This document shows positions 281 through 61,224 of a stretch of 64,000 nucleotides of DNA, in pieces. The DNA lies in contig OY829328.1 in the NCBI GenBank assembly GCA_963691655.1, positions 83,766,400-83,830,399 on the forward strand, read 5' to 3'. Within the stretch, counting starts at the first letter, position 1. The number at the start of each line of letters is the position of its first letter. A program made the position numbers and the translations under genes. Below the pieces are notes generated by a model that ran no database searches, was not told where the DNA came from, and worked only from the letters and a program-made list of their open reading frames with translations. This DNA comes from Toxonevra muliebris. Taxonomy: Eukaryota > Arthropoda > Insecta > Diptera > Pallopteridae.

Positions 281-2300
281 GCAGATTACAGGTCGCGGTA
301 CAACGACAAAAACCTCTCTAACAATACAATAAAATGTCAAATCTTCCGTTTGATACTTGACCAATAAGCAGATTTCCAGACAAAGCTTTTGACTAGACTT
401 GCTTTACTGAAGCTACTGAACATGTAAACTAATTCTGGCCAACAAATTCTAAACTCTTGCCCACTGTGCATTAATGCTGCATAGTGTATAATTTGCATAT
501 GGCAATGCCGCAGTAGTTGGTATATTGGCAATGCTAGTAGCCGCAGGAAAAAATGTATAAAACTAAAAATAAATGGTGGAAATATGCAAATATCTTTTAT
601 ATACCAACAACAACAACAACAAAAACAATAATAAGAATAGTTGGTGGTATGCTAAAAAATTAATAAACCTCCGCAAGTTTTAGAATTCACATTTGAGCTC
701 ATTCACTTTATACTTGCATATTTATTTTTATTTTTTTTTTTTTGTAAATAAATTTAATATTTAATTTTCGCTGAGAGGTTTCTGTGCTATTTATTTTTTC
801 GCTTTGGCTTTGCATATACTACTATTTGAAATACTTAACCTTTTTTTTTTCCTTTAGTTTTTAAATTCATTTTCATAGTTATAGCTAGTATTCCATAAGT
901 AGTTGCGCGCTAATCAAATTCAATCAATATAATTTTTTCTAGACACCGTCCTCATACCAGCTCCATACTCTGCCTGCCATAAGTAGTTTAAAAATATATG
1001 TAATGGTATACTGCCATCGCTACTTGTTAACCAAAGTGTTCAACTGCAAACACCGACGCGCACACAAAGACACACACACACTCACACTAAGCCACAACTG
1101 GACAACTTGAACAGCTCGGCACACTTCATTCACACACTTGCTATATTGCCTGTCGTTTCTAACCTTTTCACCGCTATTCAGCTAAGAATTATGTCTATGC
1201 CTTTCATATCGATACCCGGAATCAATAAGGAAGTCTATACATTTATGTATGTATGTGTGTTTGTGTGTGTGTGTTGCATGAAGTTTTCGAATTTTAAATC
1301 TAATGAGAAAAAATTTCCACATCATCAAAGCTCATTCCAGTCCATAAATTTCGTAATAAATGTATTGACCAGCCTCATAGATATTTAGTTATACGAGAGT
1401 AAGCGCTTTTTATGTTTGTATGCTTGAAAGTACATATATTGGTTGGTTTAAGTGTTTTCTCATACATATTGGTTGAAGAAGTTATTTTATTGAAGTTGGC
1501 GGTTTTTTGTTAGTACTAAAGCAGCGTTCGTTTTCCTTCTAACGTTTCTTAATGATTTCTAAAGTGTTTCAGGTTTGTAAATAGCGCCTAAATGAGCTTT
1601 GCATGGAATTATGTAGAACTACTAAAGAAGTTTTTTTTCATTAATGGAGTTTTAAAGCCAAAAATAATTAATTAGTTGAAGAATATCTCCGTCGTCGACA
1701 GAAAGGAGGAAGAAAGTCAGTTGCCTGTACAACATCAAAGCGACGCCTCAGGAAGTAGGTAAGGCTAGCAGCTCAAAAACCTCAAATCTAGTGGACTTCA
1801 TTGACTTGGGCTCATTTAAATATCGAAATAAAATATAAATATGTCAAAACTTAATGACATAAGGCCCTCAAGAAGTAACCCGCCAATTTTTCTACAAGGA
1901 AGGTAGTTTACAGATCCGCTCACGGTTAATGGAGTTCCGCCAATTTAATCTGTGCCAGTGGAACAGTTCAAATTGCTGTTCTCGGCAGACCATCTACCTT
2001 GAAAATAACATTAGAGTTACGCACGCGAAGCTTTGACGATATTCCAAAGAGTCAATAGAGCTTTAAACCATACAATCTTCAATAAGCTTTAATTAACTAG
2101 GTATCAAATATAATCCAGAGACTCCACTTGAGTTCATGAAGCTCCTGCAAATAATGTGAATTAAATTCCATTTTGTATCTGTCAGTCAAAGTGAAATATT
2201 TCTAACATTACATTAGGAAACAGAGGCAATTGGCTGATGTTCTGATTATGCTGTCAAAAAAGTTATTATTTTAACGAACATGAACTCTTGTACCCGATCG
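281..2300. other. Gene-free AT-rich stretch
   Basis: No supported gene. It holds short microsatellites ((CAA)n near 602, (CA)n near 1067, (TG)n near 1250), poly-T runs, and unassigned sequence between 1680 and 2300 that is slightly more GC-rich and may be an old repeat. The open frames here are short, lack family motifs and have AT-rich random composition. Confidence 0.5.
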
Positions 2301-2408
2301 ACGGGTAAGTTAGGTTGGGTTAAAGTAGCGGTGTGTGCTACGCACTTCTACTCGGAGGCCCTATTAGGCCCATCGTGATGCCCTTCAATCATATTTGGGA
2401 GACCTTCC
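2300..2408 (-). other. 3' UTR and AACCT-type tail of the LINE relic
   Basis: Directly downstream (minus strand) of the LINE stop. It carries an ATCACGATGGGCC segment and ends in TTTAACCCAACCTAACTTA. Both features recur at the 3' ends of the SINE at 7449-7749 and of the LINE at 7785-8840. This is consistent with a 3' end recognised by one family of reverse transcriptase. Confidence 0.5.
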
Positions 2409-3645
2409 CTATCTGTTCGGTTCCCTACGGATCCAGACTAAATCCTTTCGAAACCACCCAGTCTTGACGAGAAAGCTGTGAAGATGTGAAATCCGTGCAT
2501 CAGCTATGTCTGTTAGTCCGTCAAAGAACCTTGCCCCGAGAGTTCGGAGCCGTCGTTCGTGAAATGTAGGACAATGCCATAGTAGATGCTCGACCGATTC
2601 CACTGCGTCTTCATCTACAGAGCCTCTGCTTATATCGTTACACATTCATCCATAGCGCAGGGATCGGTGATAACACCCGGCACCATGTGCACAGCATGTT
2701 TAACGAGTCGCAAAATACTTTTTGCCCTTTTAATGCTTAGTCGTGGCCACTGGGTACGTGCAATCCCCCAATCACCCCTAGCCGACCAAGCTCTGTTTGT
2801 GGATTCGGTTAACCACTCTCCTATTGTCCTTGCTGTAACACAAAACGGTGGTAGTAGCATGTATTGATGACCCTGCTCGGGCAAGTTCGTCCGCCATGTC
2901 ATTCCCTTCAATATTTCTATGTCCGGGAACCCAACGTAAACTTACCCCACAGTGTCTTATGCTGCTCATAACGTTATGATAATGTTGCAGAAGCTTTGAT
3001 TTTATGACAGTAGATTCAATAGCTTTCAAGGCAGCTTGGCTATCCACACAGATTACAGCTTCCTTAAGGAAGGTGCTTTTTATGTGTTCTGCTGCCTTCA
3101 TGATGGCAAAAACTTCTGATTGGAATACGCTACAGTAATCCGGTAATCTATATGACCTTCGAATTTGTTGCGTTACACAAAAAATTCCCGCACTAATTCC
3201 TCCATCTGTCTTTGAGCCATCAGTAAAGTAGACTGTTGAGAGGTCTTCAACATCAGGCTGTAGCCAGCTATCTCTGGAGGGATAGTCGATCGGAATTTTC
3301 CAGTTAAAATCACTGCGTGTTACCAGGTAATCAGTTGACTTACCTATAAGGCTGTGCAAGGTATCGCCACTCATTAAGTTGTCCAGTATACTGGAATGTT
3401 TGCAGTTGGCTGATGTCAGCTGGTTAGACCTCCTCAATCTTAGAATAGTCTTTGCTGCACTAGCCTTTAAAAAAATTTCCAGAGGGGAAAGGTGTAGAAT
3501 CATCTCCAGAGCCATTCGCGGAGCGCTTCTTACAGCTCCTGTAATGCCCAGAATGGCGAGTCTTTGCTGACGGGGTAATTGACCAAGTATTGTTGCGGCA
3601 TAGACGGACCATGAACGATTTCTGATGCCGTTCTAATATCTGGCA
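2409..3645 (-). pseudogene. Non-LTR retrotransposon ORF2 3' half: RT end, RNase H, C-terminal knuckle (relic)
   Basis: Reading down the minus strand: the post-RT segment (SWSVYAATILG, then LAILGITGAVRSAP, typical of LINEs of the I/LOA/R1 group); an RNase H domain with YFTDGSKTDGG, the FQSEVFAI segment with its catalytic Glu, the CVDSQAAL Asp and the WVPGHRNIEGNDMADELAR final motif; then the W-rich spacer and the tail EDAVESVEHLLWHC. Frameshifts near 2860 and 2640 move the frame, so it cannot make an intact protein. The 5' end is lost near 3645. The 3' flank (2300-2408) has a GGGCC-rich segment and ends in an AACCT-like tail near 2305-2325. The exact clade (LOA, I or R1 type) is inferred, not proven. 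Confidence 0.85.
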
Positions 3646-3835: not shown

Positions 3836-3974
3836 GTAGGTTAGGCTAGGTTAGGTCAAGTCAGGTTAGGTTAGGTTAGGTTAGGTTAGGTTAGGTTAGG
3901 TTAGGTTAGGTTAGGTTAGGTTAGGTTAGGTTAAGTTAGGTTAGGTTAGGTTAGGTTAGGTTAGGTTAGGTTAC
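3836..3974 (+). repeat. (TTAGG)n pentamer array
   Basis: About 28 nearly perfect TTAGG pentamers with a few point variants at the edges. TTAGG is the ancestral arthropod telomere unit, but flies generally lack such telomeres, and here the array is interstitial. It directly abuts the 3' end of a minus-strand SINE (3990-4105), so its complement, AACCT, reads as an expanded SINE tail. Confidence 0.95.
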
Positions 3975-3989
3975 GTTACTTTAAGTAAA

Positions 3990-4105
3990 GTTAGGTTAGA
4001 GTGGCTGTTTAAAGACACACTTACGCTTGAGCGGCTCATTATGATACCACATAGTTGGAACTACAGTTTAACGACGATTCCGGTAAGGCGAAACACTTTC
4101 TTTAC
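3990..4105 (-). mobile_element. tRNA-derived SINE (family B), 5'-truncated
   Basis: The reverse complement matches the 3' half of the full-length SINE at 7449-7749: GGCGTTAAACTGTAG-like, CAACTATGTGGTATCA, AAGTGTGTCT and CAGCCACT segments occur in the same order. The tRNA-like head is missing. The 3' end passes into CTCTAACCTAAC and then the AACCT array at 3836-3974. Confidence 0.75.
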
Positions 4106-7749: not shown

Positions 7750-7784
7750 AAACTCTATACCGATTATTTATTCTATGAACTCTA

Positions 7785-8737
7785 GTGTCGGGATTAAGAA
7801 TCTATAAAATTTTTAAATTTAGTGAACTGAAAGTGTTTCCATCCAAATCTTTTCAAAATTTTTGGACTAAGTGGCCAAAGTTTACAGGGGACTATCATTT
7901 ATGGTATACAGATGGCTCCAAGACAAACGTAGGAGTTGAGGCAGGAGTGTACGGAGTTAGACCAAAAAAATATATTTATGCCGGTATGGGCACAGGTAAC
8001 TCAGTTTTCCAAGCCGAGGTGCATGCCATCGAGCTTTGCCTAAGGGAGTATGAAAACAGATCTGTGCACAGCAAGAACATTTACATACACTCTAGACAGC
8101 AAAGCGGCTCTTCTTGCACTAACTGCATATAAAATTACCTCCAAACTAGTTTGGGACTGCCTACAGCTCCTAATATGTCTAGCTTCTCATAACAGAGTAC
8201 AACTCATTTGGGTGCCAGGGCATAGAGGACATGTAGGCAATGAAATTGCGGACGAACTTGCAAGGAAAGGATCATCCAGTGAATTCACTGGACCACGACC
8301 ATTCTGCGGTCTACCATGGAGTTCCGTTAAAATCAGTTTAAAAAATTGGCTGGACAGTAACTCGCTACAATACTGGAGGGAAACCACCGGTAACAGACAA
8401 GCTAGATCATTCATGTCAAAGATCTGTCAACGCAGAACTAAACAACTGCTTAATTTAGGCAGGAACCAAATCCGAATTGCCACAGGATTCTATACAGGGG
8501 CACTGTAGGATAAAAAAACACCTATCGAACTTGGGTCTAGCACAAGACGATACGTGCCGAATATGTAACGAGGAGGAAGAAACAGCAGAAAATATTTTAT
8601 GCCACTGTGAAGGTCTAATGAGGACCCGACTTCGTTACTTGGGAAACTCTATCCTACAACCGCAAGACATTGCGGATTGTTCTCCTAAAGAGATATTAAA
8701 TTTCCTCAAAGGAAATAAACTCATAGGAGAACTATAA
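7785..8737 (+). pseudogene. Non-LTR retrotransposon: RNase H domain and C-terminal knuckle (two frameshifts)
   Basis: RNase H begins LWYTDGSKTNVGVEAGVYG (catalytic Asp), continues FQAEVHAIELC (Glu) and, after a one-base frameshift near 8090, DSKAALLAL (Asp), then LIWVPGHRGHVGNEIADELAR. The connecting segment (SFMSKICQRRTKQLLNLGR) is followed by a second frameshift near 8500, then GHCRIKKHLSNLGL and the knuckle CRICNEEEETAENIL...CHC, ending at a stop at 8735-8737. Otherwise free of stops, so relatively young. 5' RT is absent. Clade is uncertain (LOA/I-like). The C-terminus shows that the fragment at 2-280 is the same family. Confidence 0.85.
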
Positions 8738-8840
8738 ACACAATAATCTTTGAGGTATATCACAATAGGCCCTAGATGGCCGGAGTGATCAGGGAAATTA
8801 TTGCCCACCTCCGTATTAATCTAATCTACGTGGACTAGAT
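8738..8840 (+). other. 3' UTR of the LINE relic sharing its end with SINE family B
   Basis: GAGGTATATCACAATAGGCC at 8751-8770 parallels GTGGTATCACAATGGGCC at 7687-7704 in the SINE. The terminal CTCCGTATTAATCTAATCTAC parallels the SINE's CTCCAATCTAACCTA. This is the pattern expected when a SINE borrows the 3' end of its partner LINE. Confidence 0.55.
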
Positions 8841-8936
8841 TTTATAAAAATTGTAGTATTAGAATCGCGAATAGCTTCACCTTGTATATATCGTAAACAC
8901 TTAAATTGAAATCATCCACTTTCCTAAAATTTTAGG

Positions 8937-10176
8937 CTGATAACACAGTACAACACAAATTTTCGGGACAAAACCAAACCAATCTCACACGATAGTATTT
9001 GACCTCAGTAATAAAAGCCCCAATCTCTTTTTGCTCCACTACGTCACAATTTTTTTTTACAGTGGTTTGAAATTTTGATTTTTTGGTAAAAAATCGTTTG
9101 ATTCGAATGAGAAAAATCATAAACAAAATTTTGCTTAAGGTGGTTCTTGTTTTGCACGACCTATAATAAAATTTACCTAGGAATATTTTCTTAGAATATT
9201 TTAACCCTCTAGCTCCCACCAGTATGGGTCATTTTGGGCCCTTTTGTTAAAAACTCCTTAAAAGCTAGGTTTTAGGGGAGGGAAAAGGTTAAACTATTCC
9301 AAAAAAGTATTCTTCAGAAACTTTCATTAAGGGCCACCAAAGACAAGCAACCTTTAGAAGTTAAAGGTAACACATAAAAAACGAAATTAAGTGTTAAGAA
9401 ATTTATTTGTAAGCATATATTGCAAAGTGCGATATTATGTATGATCAATAATATCCTTTAGAATGGAGTTTTTAAAATATCAATAAATTTTGTTATATCT
9501 GCGGCCATTTCACGCTATCTCATCGCAGGTAAGGTTGTTTCAGCACTGAACTAATATTGTCGTATGAAAAATACTATGAACAGTGATATGTGATTACGGC
9601 ATCGTTACAATATTATTTAACGATTCTTTGCTGCTAAAAGTTTATACGTTTCATACTTACAGCACATATTACAAGGATATTACTAATCATTCTTACAAAT
9701 AAATCTCTTAACATTTAATTTCGTTTTTTTATGTGTTACTTTTAACTCCTAAACGTTACTTGTATTCGGTGACCCTTAGTGAAATTTTCCGGCAAATATT
9801 TTTGTTGAAGTTTTTAACCCTTGGCCTCCCCTTTAACTTACCTTTTAAGGAGTTTTTGAGAAAAAGGCCAAAATGACCAATACTGGTGAGAGTTAGAGGG
9901 TTAAAATGTTCTAAAGAAATATTTTTTGGAAAATTTTACTATAGGTTACCCAAGATAAGAACGACCTTAAATAAAAATTTACAAATGATTTTTCTCATTA
10001 TTTGACTCGATTTTTGCCCAAAAAATCAAAATTTCAAAACGCTGTAAAAAAAAATTGTGACGTAGTGGAGCAAAAAGAGTTCGGGGCTTTTGTTACTGAG
10101 GTCAAATACTATTTTTTGCGATTGGTTTGGTTTTGTCCCGAGACATTGACCCTCAAATTGTTGTATAGTGTAATCA
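8937..10176. mobile_element. Foldback element with ~500-bp inverted arms (1.24 kb)
   Basis: The left arm (8937 to about 9450) is the inverted copy of the right arm (about 9660-10176). Termini CTGATAACACAGTACAAC and, inverted, CTGATTACACTATACAAC. Both arms contain GGGACAAAACCAAACCAAT and an identical-sense open frame (KNCDVVEQKE...GAF.TEVKYY) read toward each terminus; it looks like a by-product of arm identity rather than a gene. The spacer has no transposase. No clear target-site duplication was found, so class is unassigned. Confidence 0.8.
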
Positions 10177-14876: not shown

Positions 14877-15715
14877 TTAATCAAGTACATACTGGCTATT
14901 ATTATCTATGATCTTTTGCCATTTTTCCTGTAGCTTCATAATTCCATTGGTGTAAAACTTGGCTAAGTGATTTTCTTTTGTAGGCCAATTTTTTCCATCA
15001 AGAGAGTTTTGCAGAGACCCAAACAAATGGTAGTCAGACGGTGCAATGGCCGGGCTATATGCGCATCAAAACTTCCCAGCCAAGTGCAGTCAATTTTCAG
15101 CGGGTCATCAAAGATGTGTGTGGCCTGGCATTATCATGGTGGAACACAACACCTTTTCTGTTGCCCAATTCTAGTCCCTCTTTCCTGATTGCTTCATTCA
15201 AACGGTCGAGTTGTGAGCAGTAGAGATCAGAATTGACTGTCTGGCCAGATTGTAGAAGCTCATAACAGACAATTCCCTTCCAATCTCACTAAACACTTAG
15301 CATAACCTTTTTGCCATCAATCCAGGCTTTGAAGTGGTTTGTGGAAGGTCACCGGCCTTTGACAATAATTTTTTGTTTAATATTCTCGTAGTCAATCCAT
15401 TTTTCCTCACCCGTAATGATTCGTTGCGTTTCAGCAGCGTTTCACAGATGGTAAATCGGTGAATAAAATTTCTTTGTGTTAATTCATGTGGCACCCAAAC
15501 ATCGAGCTTCTTCGAGCAGCCAGCCTTTTTTAAATGATTCCAAACTGTCATGTGGTTGATGTTTAGTGCCTCCGCTTTCTCCTGACAGCTTGCGGGCCGG
15601 TCTTGCTCCCCCAGTTGCAAACTTTTAACGGCATTTTCAGTGACCGACCGGTCAGAGCGAGGTGTATCTTTGACATCGAAATTTCCAGAACGCAATCGGA
15701 AGCATCACGTAGCGT
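14877..15715 (-). pseudogene. mariner transposase relic
   Basis: Minus-strand reading: RSGNFDVKDTPRSDRSVTEN, the helix-turn-helix linker (MTVWNHLKKAGCSKKLDVWVPHEL), ITGEEKWIDYEN (first catalytic Asp replaced by Glu), KGIVCYELLQSGQTVNSD, FHHDNARPHTS (second Asp present) and the C-terminal KWQKIIDNNSQYVLD followed by a stop at 14877-14879. The pattern is that of a DD34D mariner of ~345 residues. Several frameshifts and stops and a missing N-terminus show it is dead. The stop codon lies inside the TTAA target of the adjoining MITE. Confidence 0.85.
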
Positions 15716-16358
15716 ATTTCTTCAAAAATTTCACTAATTTTCAAATCAATATAACTTTTTACACGAATGACGAACTACAAAACTGTCTTTGCAAAAAAGG
15801 CAACTTGAAATGTCAATGTATGCGTGGTACCATTAACACCATCTTGTGACTAAAACCAAAAATACTTTTTATATGACCCAATACAATGATAGTTCAAGAT
15901 GTTGTTTTTTGCACTGTTGTCCGTAGAAACTCAACTGAGAATAATGAGAGAATATTGCTCTCGCTCAAAGGCAATGAACGCATATGATTAGTCAATTGAA
16001 AGCATAGCGATAGATATTCACTTTCTGACTTGTAACGCAACGTTCTTCCAATGGCCGGGGTAGAGTGGTTCGCTCAGCGGGCTCCAGTGGTTCGTTGGTT
16101 ACAGATATTTGTTATTTTGCAGGGAACCCTCATTTTCTTTTATTGAGACACATTCTTTTTAAATTCAATATATTCTTTAATTGACTTTCGTTTCTACAAT
16201 GTTTATAATAAAAATGACATACACACACAAACTGATTGTACTATTCTCTTACGTTCTCCCGGTCCTCTGGGCGAGCGTGCGGGGTGTACAGAGCGTTGTC
16301 CATGATGTCTACGATGCTTAAGGTGCGCATGGTAGGGCGAGCGAGAAGAGCGTACAGA

Positions 16359-16912
16359 GCGTTGTCTACGATACTCCTGATAGAGCGAGCTTGCTGAGCG
16401 TTGATGACAATGGATGATACGCCTGATAGGGCAAGCTTGCTGAGTGTTGATGATAATGGATGATACGCCCGATAGGTCGAGCTTTCTGGGCGTTGATGAC
16501 AATGGATGATACGCCCGATAGGGCGAGCTTGCTGAGCGTTGTTGATAATGAATGATACGCCCGATAGGGCGAGCTTGCTGAGCGTTGATGTCAATGGATG
16601 ATACGCCCGATAGGTCGAGCTTTCTGGGCGTTGATGACAATGGATGATACGCCTGATAGGGCAAGCTTGCTGGGCGTTGATGACAATGGATGATACGCCT
16701 GATAGGGCGAGCTTGCTGAGCGTTGTTGATAATGGATGATACGCCTGATAGGGCGAGCTTGCTGAGCGTTGATGACAATGGATGATACGCCCGATAGGGC
16801 GAGCTTTCTGGGCGTTGATGTCAATGGATGATACGCCCGATAGGTCGAGCTTTCTGGGCGTTGATGACAATGGATGATACGCCTGATAGGGCGAGCTTGC
16901 TTGGCGTTGATG
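16359..16912. repeat. 46-bp minisatellite, about 12 units
   Basis: GCGTTGATGACAATGGATGA recurs exactly every 46 bp from 16398 to 16904 (11 periods), with a shorter unit before it and diverged pieces back to about 16260. Each unit contains the inverted repeat CGCCC-GATA-GGGCG, with wobble or broken-pair variants in some units. All three minus-strand frames are open across most of the array (up to 224 codons) because 46 is not a multiple of three; this is a property of the repeat, not evidence for a protein. Confidence 0.95.
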
Positions 16913-16929
16913 CAAGTAACGGGTTATAA

Positions 16930-17835
16930 CGAACCATATACTGGCGGAGTAGCGACTGTGGGACGCGGGTAGAGTAGAGCGTCCGTAACTGTCCTGCTAT
17001 TTTCTGCGCTGCCTCAAGTTTCCAACCGGCCGTCTGGGGTCATATGGTAGGGACTATACCACCCCAGTGGCACCACATAATCTGATTACAGCGTTTAGTA
17101 CTGTATTGTGGTAGTTAGGCCAACAATGCACTACTAAACGCTCGGTTACTTGCTCCTAAGAAATGTTACGCTACTCTTGTAAGTTTCTAACCGGCCGTCT
17201 GGGGTCATATTATAGGAACTATACCATCCAAGTAGCACCACACGGTCTGGTTAAAGTATTTACTATTGTATGGCGGGGTTGAGACAGCTATACAATACCA
17301 AATACTTGGACCTATACTTATATATTTACCTATTGTTTGTCTTCTACTCACCCGAATTGTGATCCCACGATGTAGTCCGCCTTGCCAGTCTGCGTAATCT
17401 CAGCGCGATTTGCCTTGCGCAGCTGCAGAAAACAATTAAAAGTATACTAGTTCTTAAATAGAAAAGCTCATCAAGCAGCCAAGGTTACAATCTCTGTATT
17501 AAGAATTATATTAAATTAAACACTCTTGATGTTGCATAAATCTCAGCTAAATGATGTAATTGTATACAATTTCCTTTAAGCATAAAACAAATAGTTCATT
17601 GTACTTGCCTAATGCAAGTTCACCCTTAAATCACACAACACAATTTGTTGTGCGTACACTCATCTCAAGCGCATTCCCCCCACCCCCCTCCTCACTCTCA
17701 TTGTCTAAATAACGACAATATTTTCTAAGAAAATATTTTCTTATTACTGATACGAGAAAAATACTAGAATATATACACTTTTTACAACAAATCCAATTAC
17801 CTTCAAGATAATAAACTTACAACGCCGGCCTTCAT
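16930..17835 (-). CDS. Tentative spliced short ORF, possible RNA host gene
   Basis: Minus strand: exon 1 ends ATGAAGGCCGGCGTT (17835-17821) directly at a consensus donor GTAAGTTT. Exon 2 is 17422-17352: its acceptor is preceded by TTTTAATTGTTTTCTGCAG and its end by donor GTGAGT. Joined in phase these read MKAGV then LRKANRAEITQTGKADYIVG and SQFG. A possible third exon from 16993 (weak acceptor, no pyrimidine tract) would add about 22 residues (TVTDALLYPRP...) and stop near 16930. I do not recognise the protein. Its shortness, and two hairpin units inside intron 2, suggest the transcript may matter more than the peptide. Exons 1-2 are moderately supported, exon 3 weakly. Confidence 0.4.
17015..17152 (-). 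ncRNA. Structured RNA-like unit 1 (H/ACA-like candidate)
   Basis: Two hairpins. On the minus strand the first has arms AGCGTTTAGT / ACTAAACGCT (10 bp), a symmetric 3-nt internal loop, then GCATTGT / ACAATAC. A hinge with AGATTA (fits the H-box consensus ANANNA) precedes a second hairpin with CTGGGG / CCCCAG and an inner TGGTA / TACCA. It is homologous to 17180-17310. No convincing terminal ACA box was found, so an H/ACA snoRNA is only one possibility. Confidence 0.45.
17180..17310 (-). ncRNA. Structured RNA-like unit 2, diverged copy of unit 1
   Basis: Shares AAACTT..., CCGGCCGTCTGGGGTCATAT and TATACCA with unit 1, but the first stem has changed to AAGTATTT / AAATACTT and ATTGTAT / ATACAAT around the same 3-nt internal loop. 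The changes fall on both sides of the stem, preserving pairing. The hinge is AGACCG, one base off ANANNA. It lies about 40 bases inside intron 2 of the tentative spliced gene. Confidence 0.45.
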
Positions 17836-18780
17836 TGTTCCGCAAGCAGCCGCTCACTCACACGCCCGGTACTTTTGCCATTTCTGCTCTGCTGCCACTA
17901 GTGTTCAACATCAGCATCTTCATTTCTTTTTCCTGTGTTTTTTTTTTTATCAACTGTTGATAGACTCCATGGGGAATTTCCGATGACTTTTCTACATAAC
18001 ACTATGCTACATACTACATACTTTACACTACATACACTCTTTACACAATATGATGTTGATGATGATGATGGTCTATGACTATGACTATGAATATCATGGA
18101 AATAGAGTGGACTTGTTTGTTGTTTTCCGCTTTTCCCTATTATTTTGCTATATGTACGCGCTTTTTTTTTCTTCCTATTTTTCATTGCTCATTATTTTCT
18201 ATTTTCAGAAAATGCGAAAAATTATGATTGCAAATAAAAATCGAGTTAGAAAATAAAATAGAAGAAAAAAACAATGAAAATTATATTTTCACTTGCATGT
18301 CATCAGCATAAAGAATACAAATACATGAGAAAAGAACTGCACGCAACTCTGGATAGCTTTCGCAGGATTGCATTTGCAGGCAGGAAATAGCATGATGCTG
18401 AATTCTTCTTCATTCCTTCTTGAGTAGTTCTATAGATATTCTTGAAAACGCGTAAACAAAACAATGAATAAACTTGAAAAAATCTAAAATTCTTAACTGC
18501 TTTTCTTCGCTGTTTTTTTCTATCTCTTTTCTATTTATGCTTTGCTATTTCTAAAGTAAATATCAATTGGCTAAATGGCTCTCATGTATGGACCGGCGAT
18601 AGACGATTGGAATACGGATTGTATTCGTATGCAGCATGACATAAACAGTAATTTAGCTTAAGGATAAAAGAAAACAGCAAACAGTAAACAGCAAATTGAC
18701 AGACAGATTCAAATGCATACACATAGATGTAGTAATAATGTTATAGCTCAGTGAGAAATGGAGCGTTTCAAGTAACGCTT
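17836..18780. other. Upstream flank and AT-rich gene-free stretch
   Basis: 17836-17900 would be the 5' untranslated region/promoter side of the tentative minus-strand gene (GC-richer than surroundings). Beyond it are (ATG/GAT)n near 18048-18070 and AT-rich sequence. No further gene recognised. Confidence 0.4.
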
Positions 18781-18879
18781 TAAATGCGCTTCTTTATTAG
18801 CACTGTATGGGGAATTGGATGTAAAGTGAAACCACTCAAACTCGCACAAAGTTTAGTCCTATTGAGTAGTAGTTACCAT

Positions 18880-20010
18880 ACCAAATTTGAATGAGATCGG
18901 TCAAAAACTCGCCAAGTTGGCTGTTTTGGTCCAACATCCCCAGTTTCGGAACCATGTCACTACCGAGGAGTTTTTAAGACAAGTGCTTCAAAATTAAACG
19001 CTTAAAAAGTGCTCACAAGTGCACCATTTCAACCAGAAATCGCATAGCAACAATCCGACTAGCAGATGAAGTTTTCTATTGAGTAATAAAAAATCTAGTA
19101 TCGTTTAGTTTTAACGCAACAGCGAAGTAAAGTGTTTGTGAAATCCAAGATTTTTTTCTCTCTCCTCTCTTTCTCAACTAAAGTAAGCACGAAGCAGCGA
19201 ATGATCGAGCGGAAGTACCTATCTAACGCACTCATTGTTGCACTTGTTTAGCGTTAAAAGTACTGCACTAAACAAGCGCTAGTCTCTTAGGACAGACAAT
19301 GTTAAAATTTATGCGGAACATATGTGCTTTTAAAGCACTTAAATGCTTGCAGTTAAGCACTTGTTTAGCGCTATTTTAGTTCTTCAATTAACTGTTGGGC
19401 AATCACCTATTCCATTTAAAAATGTTTGTTCAAAACGTTTTCTACAGATTTTTCTTCAACCTTTAAAAAAAAAAATATTTAAAAAAATCCAAAAACTTGA
19501 CCGATTTTCTTTAAAAATAAAAAATCGTTTTTTCAAAAAGGAACGCTTCTTTTTTTTGAGATCAAGAGAAAGCTTAGGTCTTTTCCTTTCAGAACTTTGT
19601 GGTCCAAAAGTATGCAGAGATTTATTTATCTAACAAAATGAACTTCGAGTATCTCGAAACACCCATGACTTAGTACACTTTGATTTTCGAATTTAAAATT
19701 TAAATTTTATAGTTTCTGTTCGTATTTGCTAGAAAGAAATACCTAAAAAAGTGTTTAAATAAAAATAAATCAGACAAATTTTCGATTTTTTCGAAACTTT
19801 TTTTTCTCTCTTAAAAAGATTGAAGAAAAGTCTGTCGAAAACGTTTCGATCAAAATTTTCTAAATGAAATAGGTTATTAGTTACATGGATCTGAAACAAG
19901 GGCTGTTTGACCAAAATGTCAAAATTCTACCTCTTTCAACTCGGCGAGTTTTTCAACGATCTCTTTGGTTTGTGCCGGATCGGTTTTAAATGTGTGTTCA
20001 CTTGGAATAG
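18880..20010. repeat. Long inverted repeat (foldback-like), interrupted left arm
   Basis: GAGATCGGTCAAAAACTCGC at 18891-18912 pairs with the inverse GAGATCGTTGAAAAACTCGC near 19940-19962. AACGTTTTCTACAG/AGATTTTTCTTCAACCTTT at 19435-19466 pairs with the inverse at 19810-19845. About 450 bp in the left arm (18965-19420) have no partner. No transposase; short basic open frames in the arms are by-products of A/T-rich inverted sequence. Confidence 0.6.
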
Positions 20011-21923: not shown

Positions 21924-22404
21924 TTAAGCACGTTTTCTGAAGACACGACGACGTACAACCTTATAACGATAACCATCCTCGGCGGGTTGTTCGATTTCCT
22001 CGAGAGGTTCTGGGGCAGGTGCTACTGGAGCAGCTGGTGGAATGTAAGTGTTTACAGGTGCTGGCGCAGGAGCAATTGGTGCTGGTGCAGGAGCATGATG
22101 AGGTGCTGCTGGTGGTGGTGGAACATAAGTGTTCACTGGTGCGGGGGCAGGTTGTGGTGCTGGGGCAATGGGAGCGGGTGGAATATAGGAACGTTGTGGT
22201 TGTTGGGGAATTGGTTGTGGTGCTGGTGCAGGGGGAGCAGGTTGTGGATAATCATAACCAGCAGCACCACCGTTTAACTCTGAGACATCAGCGTAGGCGC
22301 AGGCCAAGAAGGTGACGGCAATGATAAGGAATTTCTGTGGAAAAAAAGAAGAAATTTAAATATTGGAATATTTAATCCTTTACAGATTTGTTTTAACTTA
22401 CCAT
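21924..22404 (-). CDS. Small secreted Pro/Ala-rich structural protein, copy A
   Basis: Two exons: the start codon alone (22404-22402) is exon 1; a 67-bp GT-AG intron (22401-22335) follows; exon 2 runs 22334-21924. The 137-residue product starts MKFLIIAVTFLACAYA, a clear signal peptide likely cut before DVSELNGG. The mature chain has GYDYPQP, Pro-Ala-Pro runs, two APVNTYxPP modules near residues 70-105, and a basic-aromatic end DGYRYKVVRRRVFRKRA. No chitin-binding R&R domain is present. Extracellular location and a cuticle, chorion or peritrophic-matrix type role are inferred from signal peptide, composition and Tyr-containing modules. It differs from copy B by one extra Pro, Gln/His in EEIExPAED, and Lys/His near the end. 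I recognise the style of protein, not a named gene. Confidence 0.9.
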
Positions 22405-25477: not shown

Positions 25478-26630
25478 TGATTTATGATCACAACTGAGTA
25501 ATCCTTTTACTGCTGCAGAAAACACAGTGGATTAAGACCACTGAAACAAGTACGATTGAAATAACTCTGATTAAAAAGGTCCAATGTCCTACTGGGATTA
25601 TCTTCAGCAACAGTAAATAACTAAGAGATTCTTAAATTTTTAACAAAGTCATATATTTCTCAATATTTTTAACATGATTTATGCCAAAGATATAACAACC
25701 AGCTCTAATCAGTACATGTGAACTTAAGCACGATGTCTGAAGACACGACGACGTACAACCTTATAACGATAACCATCCTCGGCGGGATGTTCGATTTCCT
25801 CGAGAGGTTCTGGGGCAGGTGCTACTGGAGCAGCTGGTGGAATGTAAGTGTTTACAGGTGCTGGTGCAGGAGCAATTGGTGCTGGTGCAGGAGCATGATG
25901 AGGTGCTGCTGGTGGTGGAACATAAGTGTTCACTGGTGCGGGAGCAGGTTGTGGTGCTGGGGCAATGGGAGCGGGTGGAATATAGGAACGTTGTGGTTGT
26001 TGGGGAATTGGTTGTGGTGCTGGTGCAGGGGGAGCAGGTTGTGGATAATCATAACCAGCAGCACCACCGTTTAACTCTGAGACATCAGCATAGGCGCAGG
26101 CCAAGAAGGTGACGGCAATGATAAGGAATTTCTGTGGAAAAAAAAGAAGGAATTTAATTATTGGAATATTTAAACCTTTACAGATTTGTTTTAACTTACC
26201 ATTTTAATTTATTTGGTTGATTGGTTTTCTTAGTTTGTAGCTTGTTTGCCTGCTCTGTGAGAGTTTGACTGCGCTTCTGCTATTTTTAAAAATGTTTCGG
26301 GTTATTTATATGTTGCGTTTGCTGATAATCATGAAATTTTCGCAGCATAAATAGAAACAGAAACACAAAAAATAAAAGACAAAACGAAACGAAAAGAATT
26401 TATATCTACTTAAAATTTATTTCTTAATAATCTTTTTCTTTTGTTGTTGCCTCGTTTGAACGAAAATGATCTTCATACAAACAAAGCGGCCATAGTTCAA
26501 TCAAACTAGATTTAAATGTTTAATTGTTATTTGTTTGCGGGCATTGTTAGTATTTTTGGTGTTGTTGTAATTATTGGTTGGTACACTCAAAGTAAATATA
26601 TCTGTAGTCTTTGAAATATACGCTAACATG
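25478..26630. repeat. Duplicated block, copy B
   Basis: Direct-orientation partner of 21661-22850 (see there). The 2.6 kb between copies is unique to the interval and carries a mariner relic. Confidence 0.9.
25724..26202 (-). CDS. Small secreted Pro/Ala-rich structural protein, copy B
   Basis: Exon 1 is the start codon only (26202-26200); a 68-bp intron (26199-26132), then exon 2 26131-25724. Product 136 residues with the same signal peptide (MKFLIIAVTFLACAYA), APVNTYVPP/APVNTYIPP modules and C-terminal DGYRYKVVRRRVFRHRA. Near-identity of protein, intron and promoter to copy A indicates a recent tandem duplication or ongoing gene conversion. Same expression as copy A is expected because the core promoter is shared. 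Both genes read the same way, about 3.3 kb apart. Confidence 0.9.
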
Positions 26631-34201: not shown

Positions 34202-34538
34202 TTAGGTTAGGTTAGGTTAGGTTAGGTTAGGCTAGGCTAGGTTAGGTTAGGTTAGGTTAGGTTAGGTTAGGTTAGGTTAGGTTAGGTTAGGTTAGGTTAG
34301 GTTAGGTTAGGTTAGGTTAGGTTAGGTTAGGTTAGGTTGGGTTGGGTTGGTTTAGGTTAGGTTAGGTTAGGTTAGGTTAGGTTAGGTTAGGTTAGGTTAG
34401 GTTAGGTTAGGTTAGGTTAGGTTAGGTTAGGTTAGGTTAGGTTAGGTTAGGTTAGGTTAGGTTAGGTTAGGTTAGGTTAGGTTAGGTTAGGTTAGGTTAG
34501 GTTAGGTTAGGTTAAGTTAGGTTAGGTTAGGTTAGGTT
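34202..34538 (+). repeat. (TTAGG)n pentamer array, about 67 units
   Basis: 337 bp of almost perfect TTAGG with two short variant patches (GGCTAGGCTAGG near 34230; GGGTTGGGTTGG near 34337). The right flank, read on the minus strand, is non-repetitive GC-richer sequence ending ...CACCCTCAACAACCTAACC, again resembling the 3' end of a retroelement followed by an AACCT tail. Confidence 0.95.
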
Positions 34539-38694: not shown

Positions 38695-38872
38695 ATTAGA
38701 ATTGGTCCTTCGAGCATTTAAGAACTAAGCCAAGGAAGTGACTCATTTTATTAGAACTATCCATTTGGACTTTTTTTTAAAGAATTTAACCCCATCTGGG
38801 AATCGAACCTGAGGCAGCTGGAACTCCAGTCTAGCACTCATTCACCAGGCCACGGGGGTGACCCATATTTAT
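38695..38872 (-). mobile_element. tRNA-derived SINE-like element (family C)
   Basis: Minus-strand head: CCCGTGGCCTGGTGAATGAG (box A-like) and a perfect box B GGTTCGATTCC, followed by a ~100-bp body and an AAT/ATA-rich tail (TTCTAATAATAAATAAAG). A single tRNA gene is ruled out because the acceptor ends do not pair. Confidence 0.6.
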
Positions 38873-45768: not shown

Positions 45769-46799
45769 TTATTCTTTAAAGTATTGTCCATCGTTAGCCA
45801 CAACCTTTTCCCATCTTTCTGGTAGCATACGGATTCCACGTCGAAAGAACTCCTCATCTTTTGAGGCTATCCACGAATCGACCCATTTTTTGAGTTCTTT
45901 GAAAGAACGGAAGTGCTGTTCAGCCAGGCCATGTGTCATCGATCGGAACAAGTGGTAATCAGAAGGAGCAATGTCTGGAGAATACGGCGGGTGGGGTAGC
46001 ACTTCCCATTTCAGCGTTTCCAAGTATGTTTTTACTTGCCTTGCAACATGCGGCCGAGCATTGTCGTGCTGAAGAATAACTTCGTCGTGTCTATTTTCAT
46101 ATTCTGGCCTCTTATCCTTTAATGCTCGGCTCAAACGCATCAATTGTAGTCGGTAGTGATCGATTCATTCGGTTTCAACAGCTCATAATACACGACACCT
46201 TTCATATCCCACCAAATAAACAGCATGAGCTTGGATCCATGGATGTTCGGCTTTGCCGTTGATGTTGATGCATGTCCGGGCGGTCCCCATGATTTTTTAC
46301 GCTTTGGGTTATCGTAACGTATCCACTTTTCATCGCCAGTCACAATACGATGCAGAAAACTCTTTCTTTTCTGTCGTTCAATCAGCAGTTCACATGTGAA
46401 AAATCGTCGTTCGATGTCTCTCGGCTTCAACTCGTACGGCACCCAATTTCCTTGCTTTTGAATCATTCCCAATGCTTTTAATCGTTTAGAAATGGTTGAT
46501 TGATCAACTCCTAAAGATTCTGCAAGTTCTTGTTGCGTTTGACATGAATCTTCTTCGAGTAATGCCTTCAATTCTTCATCTTCGAACTTTTTCGGGCCGC
46601 CTGAATGTTCCCTGTCTTCAACATCAAAATCACCGCTTTTGAAACGGGCATACCACACCTGACACATTTTAACGTCTATAGAACAGTCAGGATAAGCTTC
46701 AGTGAGTAAACGATGTGCTTCAGTTGCGTTTTTCTTTAAATGTAAGAAGCAAATTAAAACTTCCCGCAAATGTTGTTTTGTTGGCACGAAATTCGACAT
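45769..46799 (-). pseudogene. mariner transposase, nearly intact, one frameshift
   Basis: Starts ATG at 46799 (MSNFVPTKQHLREVLICFLH), the conserved N-terminus of full-length mariners. HTH1 then RFKSGDFDVEDREHSG.PKK, HTH2 SLGVDQSTISKRLKALGMIQ, WVPYELKPRDIERR, catalytic HRIVTGDEKWI (Asp 1), KPNIHGSKLMLFIWWDMKGV, a frameshift near 46140, then ILQHDNARPHVA (Asp 2), LPHPPYSPDIAPSDYHLFRS (Asp 3, DD34D spacing), and the end IRMLPERWEKVVANDGQYFK. Total about 345 residues, the family's usual length. The lesion is a small deletion between ESIT and the YRLQLMRL segment. No other stop is seen. Inverted terminal repeats could not be paired. Youngest transposase in the window. Confidence 0.9.
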
Positions 46800-47280
46800 T
46801 TTCAGCTATAGTAAAACACTTTTGTAAAATTATGAAAATTATTTGACAGATCAATTCTTATAGTATTTTTGGCGCTCTTCGATTTTAATTTCCGAGCCCT
46901 ACTTTTGGAGATTTTCGCAAACGTGTTCCATTCGATGTATGAAAAACCCAAATCATCATATTCGAAATTCTAGGTTTTAATGCAGTGTGATTTTTTGTCC
47001 TCTCCGTCGATTATAAAATTCGGAAAAACTTCTACAACGACACAATGACTTTAAGTTAGCTTTGTACTCAAAATAATGTGGCTGAGAAAATTCGCGCATG
47101 CCATCTATAATAAAATTTTCTTATTTTTTGGTGTGATAGAGAAAACTTGAGGAGAAGATCCAAATCAGCGTCCTTATGCTACCCTTAAAAATCTATTCAT
47201 TCGCCATTTGAATTTTACTATTGCACTGTGTAGTTCTAACACCACTAATTGGTAAAAACTAGAAAGGACTTCATATAGAT
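46800..47280. other. mariner 5' flank and gene-free stretch
   Basis: 46800-46915 may be mariner 5' untranslated region, but no terminal repeat matching the 3' side (ATTGGGAGTATGAATG near 45693) was found. The rest is unassigned. Confidence 0.35.
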
Positions 47281-60942: not shown

Positions 60943-61224
60943 TACTCTCAGTGTAGCGCTCTCACAAACTCACTCACGCATATACTATCAATGAATCGAA
61001 ATGCACCTGTGTAAATGTTAGAAATGTCTGAATTAGAGCGAACATGAGATAGCGGGAATAATCTCGTTTGTGCTCTCAGCAATTACTCTCAGAGTAGCGC
61101 TCTCCCAAGCTCACTCACACATACACTATCAACCAATTGAAATGCAACTGTATAAGTTTTAGAAATAACTGAATTTGAGCGAACGTGAGATAACGAGAGT
61201 AATCTCTCAGCAATCAGAGTGATC
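60943..61224 (+). repeat. Two-unit tandem duplication (141 bp)
   Basis: TACTCTCAGTGTAGCGCTCTC at 60943 and TACTCTCAGAGTAGCGCTCTC at 61084 begin two units that stay aligned through CTCACTCAC, ACTATCAA, TTGAGCGAACGTGAGATA-like and TCTCAGCAAT segments, about 80% alike. Confidence 0.8.

What the first reader, a model, noticed from the sequence alone, without database searches (positions are those of the whole stretch)
17015..17310. Covarying twin hairpin units inside an intron
Two ~130-bp homologous units sit 165 bp apart. Their first stem differs at many positions, yet pairing is kept: AGCGTTTAGT/ACTAAACGCT in one, AAGTATTT/AAATACTT in the other, both with a 3-nt symmetric internal loop and a 7-bp upper stem. 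Double-sided substitutions point to selection for RNA structure. They lie in the intron of a tentative minus-strand gene, where fly snoRNAs usually occur, and one has an H-box-like hinge. The lack of a clear ACA box leaves the class open.
Basis: partly seen in the sequence, partly recalled or inferred. Interest (0 to 1): 0.75.

Follow-up and report, generated by a model that had tools for sequence, protein, structure and literature searches.

The report
Hairpin repeats inside a solo LTR
The twin hairpins are not a pair of snoRNA genes but tandem repeats inside a broken leftover of a fly retrotransposon, a single long terminal repeat of a family found at many places in this genome.

Summary
In detail: two homologous units (from 17016 and 17181, 165 bp apart) with paired stems at the stated bases. 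The interpretation changes. The stretch also lies at 39 other fetched loci of the same genome. It is the inner part of a dispersed element that starts at 16031 and is cut off near 17426. Copies with both ends run TGTAACG...CGTCACA; of 24, 17 have exact 4-bp target duplications and 7 match at 3 of 4 bases. Elsewhere the same sequence forms the 2,004-bp LTRs of a Ty3/gypsy retrotransposon with PBS, PPT, gag, protease, RT-RNase H and integrase. So the window holds a truncated solo LTR whose sense strand is the minus strand. LTR length, tRNA-Lys-type PBS and TSD length fit the Osvaldo lineage; no tree was made. snoRNA boxes fail. Over 124 distinct units the second stem stays paired in 91% of cells, against 76-80% under independent change (0 of 1,000 simulations). 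But no single pair is significant, G-T does not exceed A-C on inner branches, and the antisense strand folds better. Pairing is kept; a sense-RNA function is not shown.

The parts
16031..17426 (-). Truncated solo LTR of a Ty3/gypsy retrotransposon family; sense = minus strand; the promoter-bearing start of the LTR (about 520 bp, with the predicted CCAAT and TATA boxes) is missing beyond 17426
   Evidence: Shared ends of copies; alignment to positions 1-1483 of the 2,004-bp LTR of L049, no match to its internal region; PBS, PPT and coding domains of L049
16370..16912 (.). 46-bp minisatellite of the LTR, 11.8 copies
   Evidence: also in other copies
17016..17180 (.). Hairpin unit 1 (165 bp)
17181..17328 (.). 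Hairpin unit 2, as far as the 149-column unit model reaches
17031..17079 (.). Hairpin 1 of unit 1 (unit columns 16-64), the best conserved part of the unit
17196..17244 (.). Hairpin 1 of unit 2
17090..17142 (.).
17255..17306 (.). Hairpin 2 of unit 2 (unit columns 75-127, one column gapped)

Best explanation
Shown: 16031-17426 is a truncated LTR, without internal region, of a Ty3/gypsy retrotransposon family that has a young two-LTR array elsewhere in this genome; the twin hairpins are tandem units carried inside LTRs of that family. Inferred: solo LTRs arise when the two LTRs of an inserted copy recombine and drop the coding part; this one later lost its promoter end. Inferred from motifs only: in the intact LTR the units lie between the TATA box and the polyadenylation signals, so they would be in a long R region, in the leader before gag and again at the 3' end of the genomic RNA. 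There I think they most likely serve the retrotransposon itself as a repeated cis-acting fold or binding site, in packaging, dimer formation or leader control (about 40%), not the host. The window copy lacks the predicted promoter and is probably inert. The confidence below is for the identification, not for the role of the hairpins.
For: 62 matches in the own genome. Common left end in 33 of 40 loci. Of 40 loci, 24 with both ends: 17 exact 4-bp TSDs, 7 at 3 of 4. 152 places with the left end at up to 2 mismatches, reversed control 2. L049/L050: three LTRs around two internal regions, first two LTRs 2,004 bp with 1 difference, PBS, PPT, CTTT on both outer sides. Pfam gag, protease, RT-RNase H, H2C2 and rve on the minus strand in gag-pol order. 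Window aligned to the LTR and not to the internal region. For a constrained unit: hairpin 1 column identity 0.92 against 0.60 in the tail; hairpin-2 pairing kept beyond the tree null.
Against: The window copy has no right end, so its own TSD cannot be read. For the role: no transcript; no pair significant; no G-T over A-C excess on inner branches; the antisense strand folds better in 54 of 60 units; hairpin 1 is not beyond the null in the larger set (79 and 62 of 1,000). The start site is a guess: an initiator-like TCAG follows the TATA motif in only 9 of 29 anchored copies, and 12 of 33 copies carry a TATAAA in their last 260 nt. 4 of 17 further copies showed no unit within the 3,061 bp fetched.
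Confidence: 0.93

Rival explanations
1. Same LTR, but the hairpin arms stay complementary without selection: template switching in reverse transcription or replication copies one arm of an imperfect palindrome from the other, and unequal exchange spreads tandem units.
For: Changes to G-T and to A-C are equal on inner branches (14 v 17, or 17 v 15), as expected if no RNA strand is read; single pairs are not significant; unit numbers vary.
Against: Hairpin 1 keeps its sequence, mismatches included, at 0.92 column identity, which arm correction does not explain. On terminal branches G-T is more frequent than A-C (38 v 24, or 37 v 32).
Confidence: 0.3
2. Same LTR, but the units act as DNA: tandem binding sites of a host protein (enhancer or insulator type), with hairpin 1 as the recognised sequence.
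For: Hairpin 1 is conserved as sequence; no strand bias on inner branches; [quoted passage not shown]
Against: By the predicted TATA box the units lie downstream of the start, not in U3; stem-2 pairing is kept while its sequence changes.
Confidence: 0.2
3. A source of small interfering RNAs: tandem hairpins of the LTR transcript are cut by Dicer, as in fly hairpin-RNA genes (recalled).
For: Tandem long hairpins; a mir-33 match far below gathering score overlaps a unit in L036 (20.6 bits against 50, E 1.3).
Against: No small-RNA data; self-silencing would work against the element.
Confidence: 0.05
4. Twin intronic snoRNA genes.
For: Two hairpins per unit with a hinge; window unit 1 has an ANANNA at the end of hairpin 1.
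Against: Dispersed LTR repeat; no Rfam gathering hit; ANANNA in the hinge 0 of 124, ACA tail 9 of 124.
Confidence: 0.01
5. A non-autonomous Ginger-type DNA transposon.
For: TGTAA and TGTGA ends and 4-bp TSDs; Ginger termini resemble Gypsy LTRs (PMC2836005, passages).
Against: About 7 bp of end symmetry by eye, against TIRs of about 40-270 bp; mixed targets, against CCGG/CCGT in Ginger1; it forms direct repeats around gag-pol with PBS and PPT.
Confidence: 0.01

Closest known systems
Osvaldo lineage of Ty3/gypsy, e.g. Osvaldo-like elements of Culex quinquefasciatus (PMC3286476, passages)
   Same: Long LTRs (997-2055 bp in the text), PBS complementary to tRNA-Lys, mostly 4-bp TSDs; here 2,004 bp, tRNA-Lys-type PBS, 4 bp
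   Different: Hairpin units of this kind are not mentioned in the passages read; no tree made to place this element
Cv_Isis-like of the blowfly Calliphora vicina (PMC3630058, passages)
   Same: Fly element of the Osvaldo lineage with long LTRs (2577/2574 bp) and a 4-bp TSD
   Different: 10,995 bp in all, against a repeat period of about 6.7 kb in L049; sequences not compared
Retroviral long R regions with stem-loops (PMC3601003, passages)
   Same: Structured, possibly transcribed part of the LTR; the paper links residual conservation in longer R regions to stem-loops
   Different: Here about 1.4 kb of predicted R, tandem units, no transcript known
Fly hairpin-RNA (hpRNA) loci (recalled)
   Same: Tandem hairpin units in a repeat
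   Different: Host loci that yield siRNAs; no small-RNA evidence here

Membership tests
Ty3/gypsy LTR retrotransposon (family of the window copy) | TG...CA ends with a short target duplication | tested here: met
   TGTAACG...CGTCACA; of 24 copies 17 with exact 4-bp TSD, 7 at 3 of 4. For the window copy itself only the left end is present
Ty3/gypsy LTR retrotransposon (family of the window copy) | Two LTRs around an internal region with PBS and polypurine tract | tested here: met
   L049: LTRs 1020-3023 and 7759-9762, TGGCGCCCGAGCAGGGAC after the LTR end, AGAGGGGGGG before the LTR start
Ty3/gypsy LTR retrotransposon (family of the window copy) | gag-protease-RT-RNase H-integrase order | tested here: met
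   Pfam domains in that order on the minus strand of L049; RVT_1 only in part, in the piece scanned
Solo LTR | LTR without internal region | tested here: met
   No match of the L049 internal region in the 64-kb window at E 1e-6
Solo LTR | One TSD pair around the single LTR | not testable with these tools
   The window copy lacks its right end
Osvaldo lineage | Long LTRs | tested here: met
   2,004 bp; range from PMC3286476, passages
Osvaldo lineage | PBS complementary to tRNA-Lys | tested here: met
   PBS differs at 1 of 18 bases from a tRNA-Lys3-type PBS listed in PMC5795417; not compared with a tRNA-Lys gene of this fly
Osvaldo lineage | Groups with Osvaldo/Isis/Ulysses in an RT-RNase H-integrase tree | not tested
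   No named reference proteins were at hand; the first relatives listed are unnamed Drosophila proteins
H/ACA snoRNA | Hairpin-hinge-hairpin-tail | tested here: met
   Two hairpins per unit on the plus strand
H/ACA snoRNA | H box ANANNA in the hinge | tested here: not met
   0 of 124 in columns 65-76; 13 of 124 starting in columns 59-66; other strand 13 of 124
H/ACA snoRNA | ACA box in the tail | tested here: not met
   9 of 124 in columns 127-149, 2 of 124 within columns 127-139; other strand 3 of 124
H/ACA snoRNA | Match to a known Rfam family | tested here: not met
   No gathering hit in the window
Ginger DNA transposon | Long TIRs and a preferred target | tested here: not met
   Ends and TSDs against PMC2836005, passages

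The most novel reading that the evidence does not exclude
A Ty3/gypsy LTR carries, in variable number, a module of one nearly invariant 49-nt hairpin and one hairpin whose arms change fast yet stay complementary. It would be a signal of the genomic RNA, present in the leader and at the 3' end, that the element multiplies to win packaging or dimer formation: a retrotransposon counterpart of a retroviral packaging domain with variable copy number.
Probability: 0.22. Interest if true: 0.5.

Novelty: new member of a known kind. Interest (0 to 1): 0.25.

Why it matters
It removes a false snoRNA candidate and shows that compensatory-looking changes between two tandem units of one genome can come from a transposon family. 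It also points to a retrotransposon with a very recent array (first two LTRs 1 base in 2,004 different) whose hairpin units vary in number between copies, so the role of a structured, repeated LTR segment could be tested by unit number and deletion in a reporter.

Tried and rejected
snoRNA and a Ginger-type DNA transposon were considered and rejected as told above. A Helitron/DINE origin was thought of because of the tandem repeats and hairpins and dropped once 4-bp TSDs were seen. Inside a script RNAalifold gave a near-zero energy and was not used; averaged single-sequence pairing was used instead. The R-scape-like test was run on 100 distinct of 101 units and on 124 distinct of 129 units: no significant pair either time. 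With one unit per locus the pairing test is weaker for first units (14 of 1,000 simulations as high) and holds for last units (0 of 1,000). Of 39 new unit hits, 11 weak, short or reverse-strand ones were dropped before the count. The first 39 loci came from a two-unit query and so favour copies with two or more units. Only 17 of the 68 further left-end places that I listed for fetching were obtained.

Full report
What was checked.

The units belong to a dispersed element. With 17015-17310 as query the same 491-Mb genome gives 62 matches, scored from the best 40 of 167 candidates. I fetched the 39 loci other than the window. Within window 15000-19000 the part shared with them runs from about 16030 to 17426; the only other hit is one locus at 15000-15050. 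A common left end, TGTAACGCAACGTTCTTCC or near it, is seen in 33 of 40 loci, the window included. Beyond 17426 other copies continue to ...GTGCCGTCACA, which the window lacks. Of the 40 loci, 24 show both ends within the fetched stretch; 17 have exact 4-bp target duplications and 7 match at 3 of 4 bases, with lengths of 1,246 to 3,049 bp. Twelve copies shorter than 1.5 kb differ by K2P 0.094 to 0.334, median 0.228.

The element is an LTR. The left end occurs at 152 places with up to 2 mismatches, against 2 for the reversed control. Three of those listed lie on contig C5 at spacings of 6,739 and 6,738 bp. That stretch holds LTR, internal region, LTR, internal region, LTR. The first two LTRs are 2,004 bp with one difference, the LTR end adjoins TGGCGCCCGAGCAGGGAC, its start follows AGAGGGGGGG, and the array has CTTT on both outer sides. 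The minus-strand frames between the first two LTRs match Retrotrans_gag, aspartyl protease, RT_RNaseH with a part of RVT_1, H2C2 and rve. The RT-RNase H piece has 2,326 relatives at E 0.001, of which 120 were listed; the first three are unnamed Drosophila proteins at 58, 63 and 63% identity. The window aligns to LTR positions 1-1483 at 69-83% identity and has no match to the internal region. Hence the window holds a truncated solo LTR with sense on the minus strand. No PBS-LTR junction was found in the other fetched loci L051-L070; a genome-wide count stayed unanswered.

Lineage. Long LTRs, a tRNA-Lys PBS and mostly 4-bp TSDs are reported for Osvaldo-like elements of Culex (PMC3286476, passages). 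A blowfly element of that lineage has LTRs of about 2.57 kb and a 4-bp TSD (PMC3630058, passages). The PBS here differs by one base of 18 from a tRNA-Lys3-type PBS printed in PMC5795417 (passages). No protein tree was made. The host looks like a calyptrate fly: the six best of 69 relatives of a GYR-motif protein are from Cochliomyia, Musca (two), Calliphora, Lucilia and Haematobia, at 47-57% identity. The species is not identified.

Layout in sense. In the young L049 LTR: CCAAT at 434, the only TATAAA at 513, hairpin-1 motifs between 719 and 1247, AATAAA at 1898 and 1930 of 2,004. TATAAAAG is present in 21 of 29 copies with the downstream anchor, a TCAG at initiator distance in 9, and AATAAA in the last 260 nt of 25 of 33 copies; but 12 of those 33 also have a TATAAA there, so a later start cannot be excluded. 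If the first TATA box is used, the R region would be about 1.4 kb and hold the units.

Structure and covariation. The first 40 loci gave 101 units: 2 in 21 loci, 3 in 17, 4 in 2. Of 17 copies chosen by the LTR end alone, 4 gave no unit hit within the stretch and several gave one. Each unit has hairpin 1 (columns 16-64) and hairpin 2 (75-127). Mean pairwise column identity: hairpin 1 0.924, hinge 0.772, hairpin-2 arms 0.783, lead 0.740, tail 0.599. Over 124 distinct units hairpin 2 forms standard pairs in 2182 of 2408 cells (0.906); independent change along the tree gives 0.756 (tree of all columns) or 0.798 (tree without hairpin columns), and 0 of 1,000 simulations reach the observed value in either. 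Hairpin 1 is not clearly beyond the simulations there (79 and 62 of 1,000), though in the smaller set it was (7 and 14 of 1,000). The R-scape-like G-test finds no significant pair; columns 77-125 rank first of 10,585 with E about 1.0, columns 92-110 seventh. On inner branches changes from Watson-Crick to G-T and to A-C are level (14 v 17, or 17 v 15 by the other tree); on terminal branches G-T is ahead (38 v 24, or 37 v 32). The antisense strand is more stable in 54 of 60 sampled units of 124 (mean z -3.05 against -2.01). Two T-G pairs of hairpin 1, present in 87 of 97 units each, are wobble pairs only on that strand.

snoRNA. No Rfam gathering hit in the window. Sub-threshold matches: sR36 twice in the minisatellite and a viral pseudoknot at 17449, and mir-33 over a unit of L036 (20.6 bits against 50), all at E above 1. 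H box in the hinge 0 of 124, ACA in the tail 9 of 124.

Verdict. An ordinary kind of object, a solo LTR of a Ty3/gypsy element, with one feature worth a note: fast-changing yet complementary arms beside a nearly frozen hairpin, in variable number. The passages read do not mention such units. The paper searches were made, of which I otherwise saw listings only. No repeat library such as Repbase or Dfam was at hand, so I do not claim that the family is undescribed.

Noticed in passing
34202-34538 and 3837-3999: Arrays of TTAGG (67 copies, 97% matches) and of TAGGT, a rotation of it (33 copies, 90%). TTAGG is the common insect telomere repeat that flies are said to lack (recalled), so interstitial arrays in a fly are odd.
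   Followed up: no
16370-16912: 46-bp minisatellite of the LTR is open over long stretches in all three minus-strand frames, but 46 is not a multiple of 3, so coding is unlikely.
   Followed up: partly
21924-22355 and 25724-26203 (minus): Two similar proline- and alanine-rich frames ending in a GYR motif, probably a tandem gene pair.
   Followed up: partly
45769-46805 (minus): Mariner-type transposase in two frames; a weak transposase match also at 15297-15704.
   Followed up: no
38787-38859 (minus): tRNA-Ser (GGA) call by ARAGORN without an Rfam gathering hit in the window; probably not a tRNA gene.
   Followed up: no
L050:4596-7319: Third LTR of the C5 array is 2,724 bp, with 16 minisatellite motif hits against 4 in each of the first two LTRs; its last bases read TCGCA, not TCACA.
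   Followed up: partly
L014 and L017: Two copies 29 kb apart in opposite orientation share nearly the same left flank, which suggests an inverted duplication of the host DNA.
   Followed up: no
60943-61206: 141-bp tandem duplication, 1.9 copies, 84% matches.
   Followed up: no
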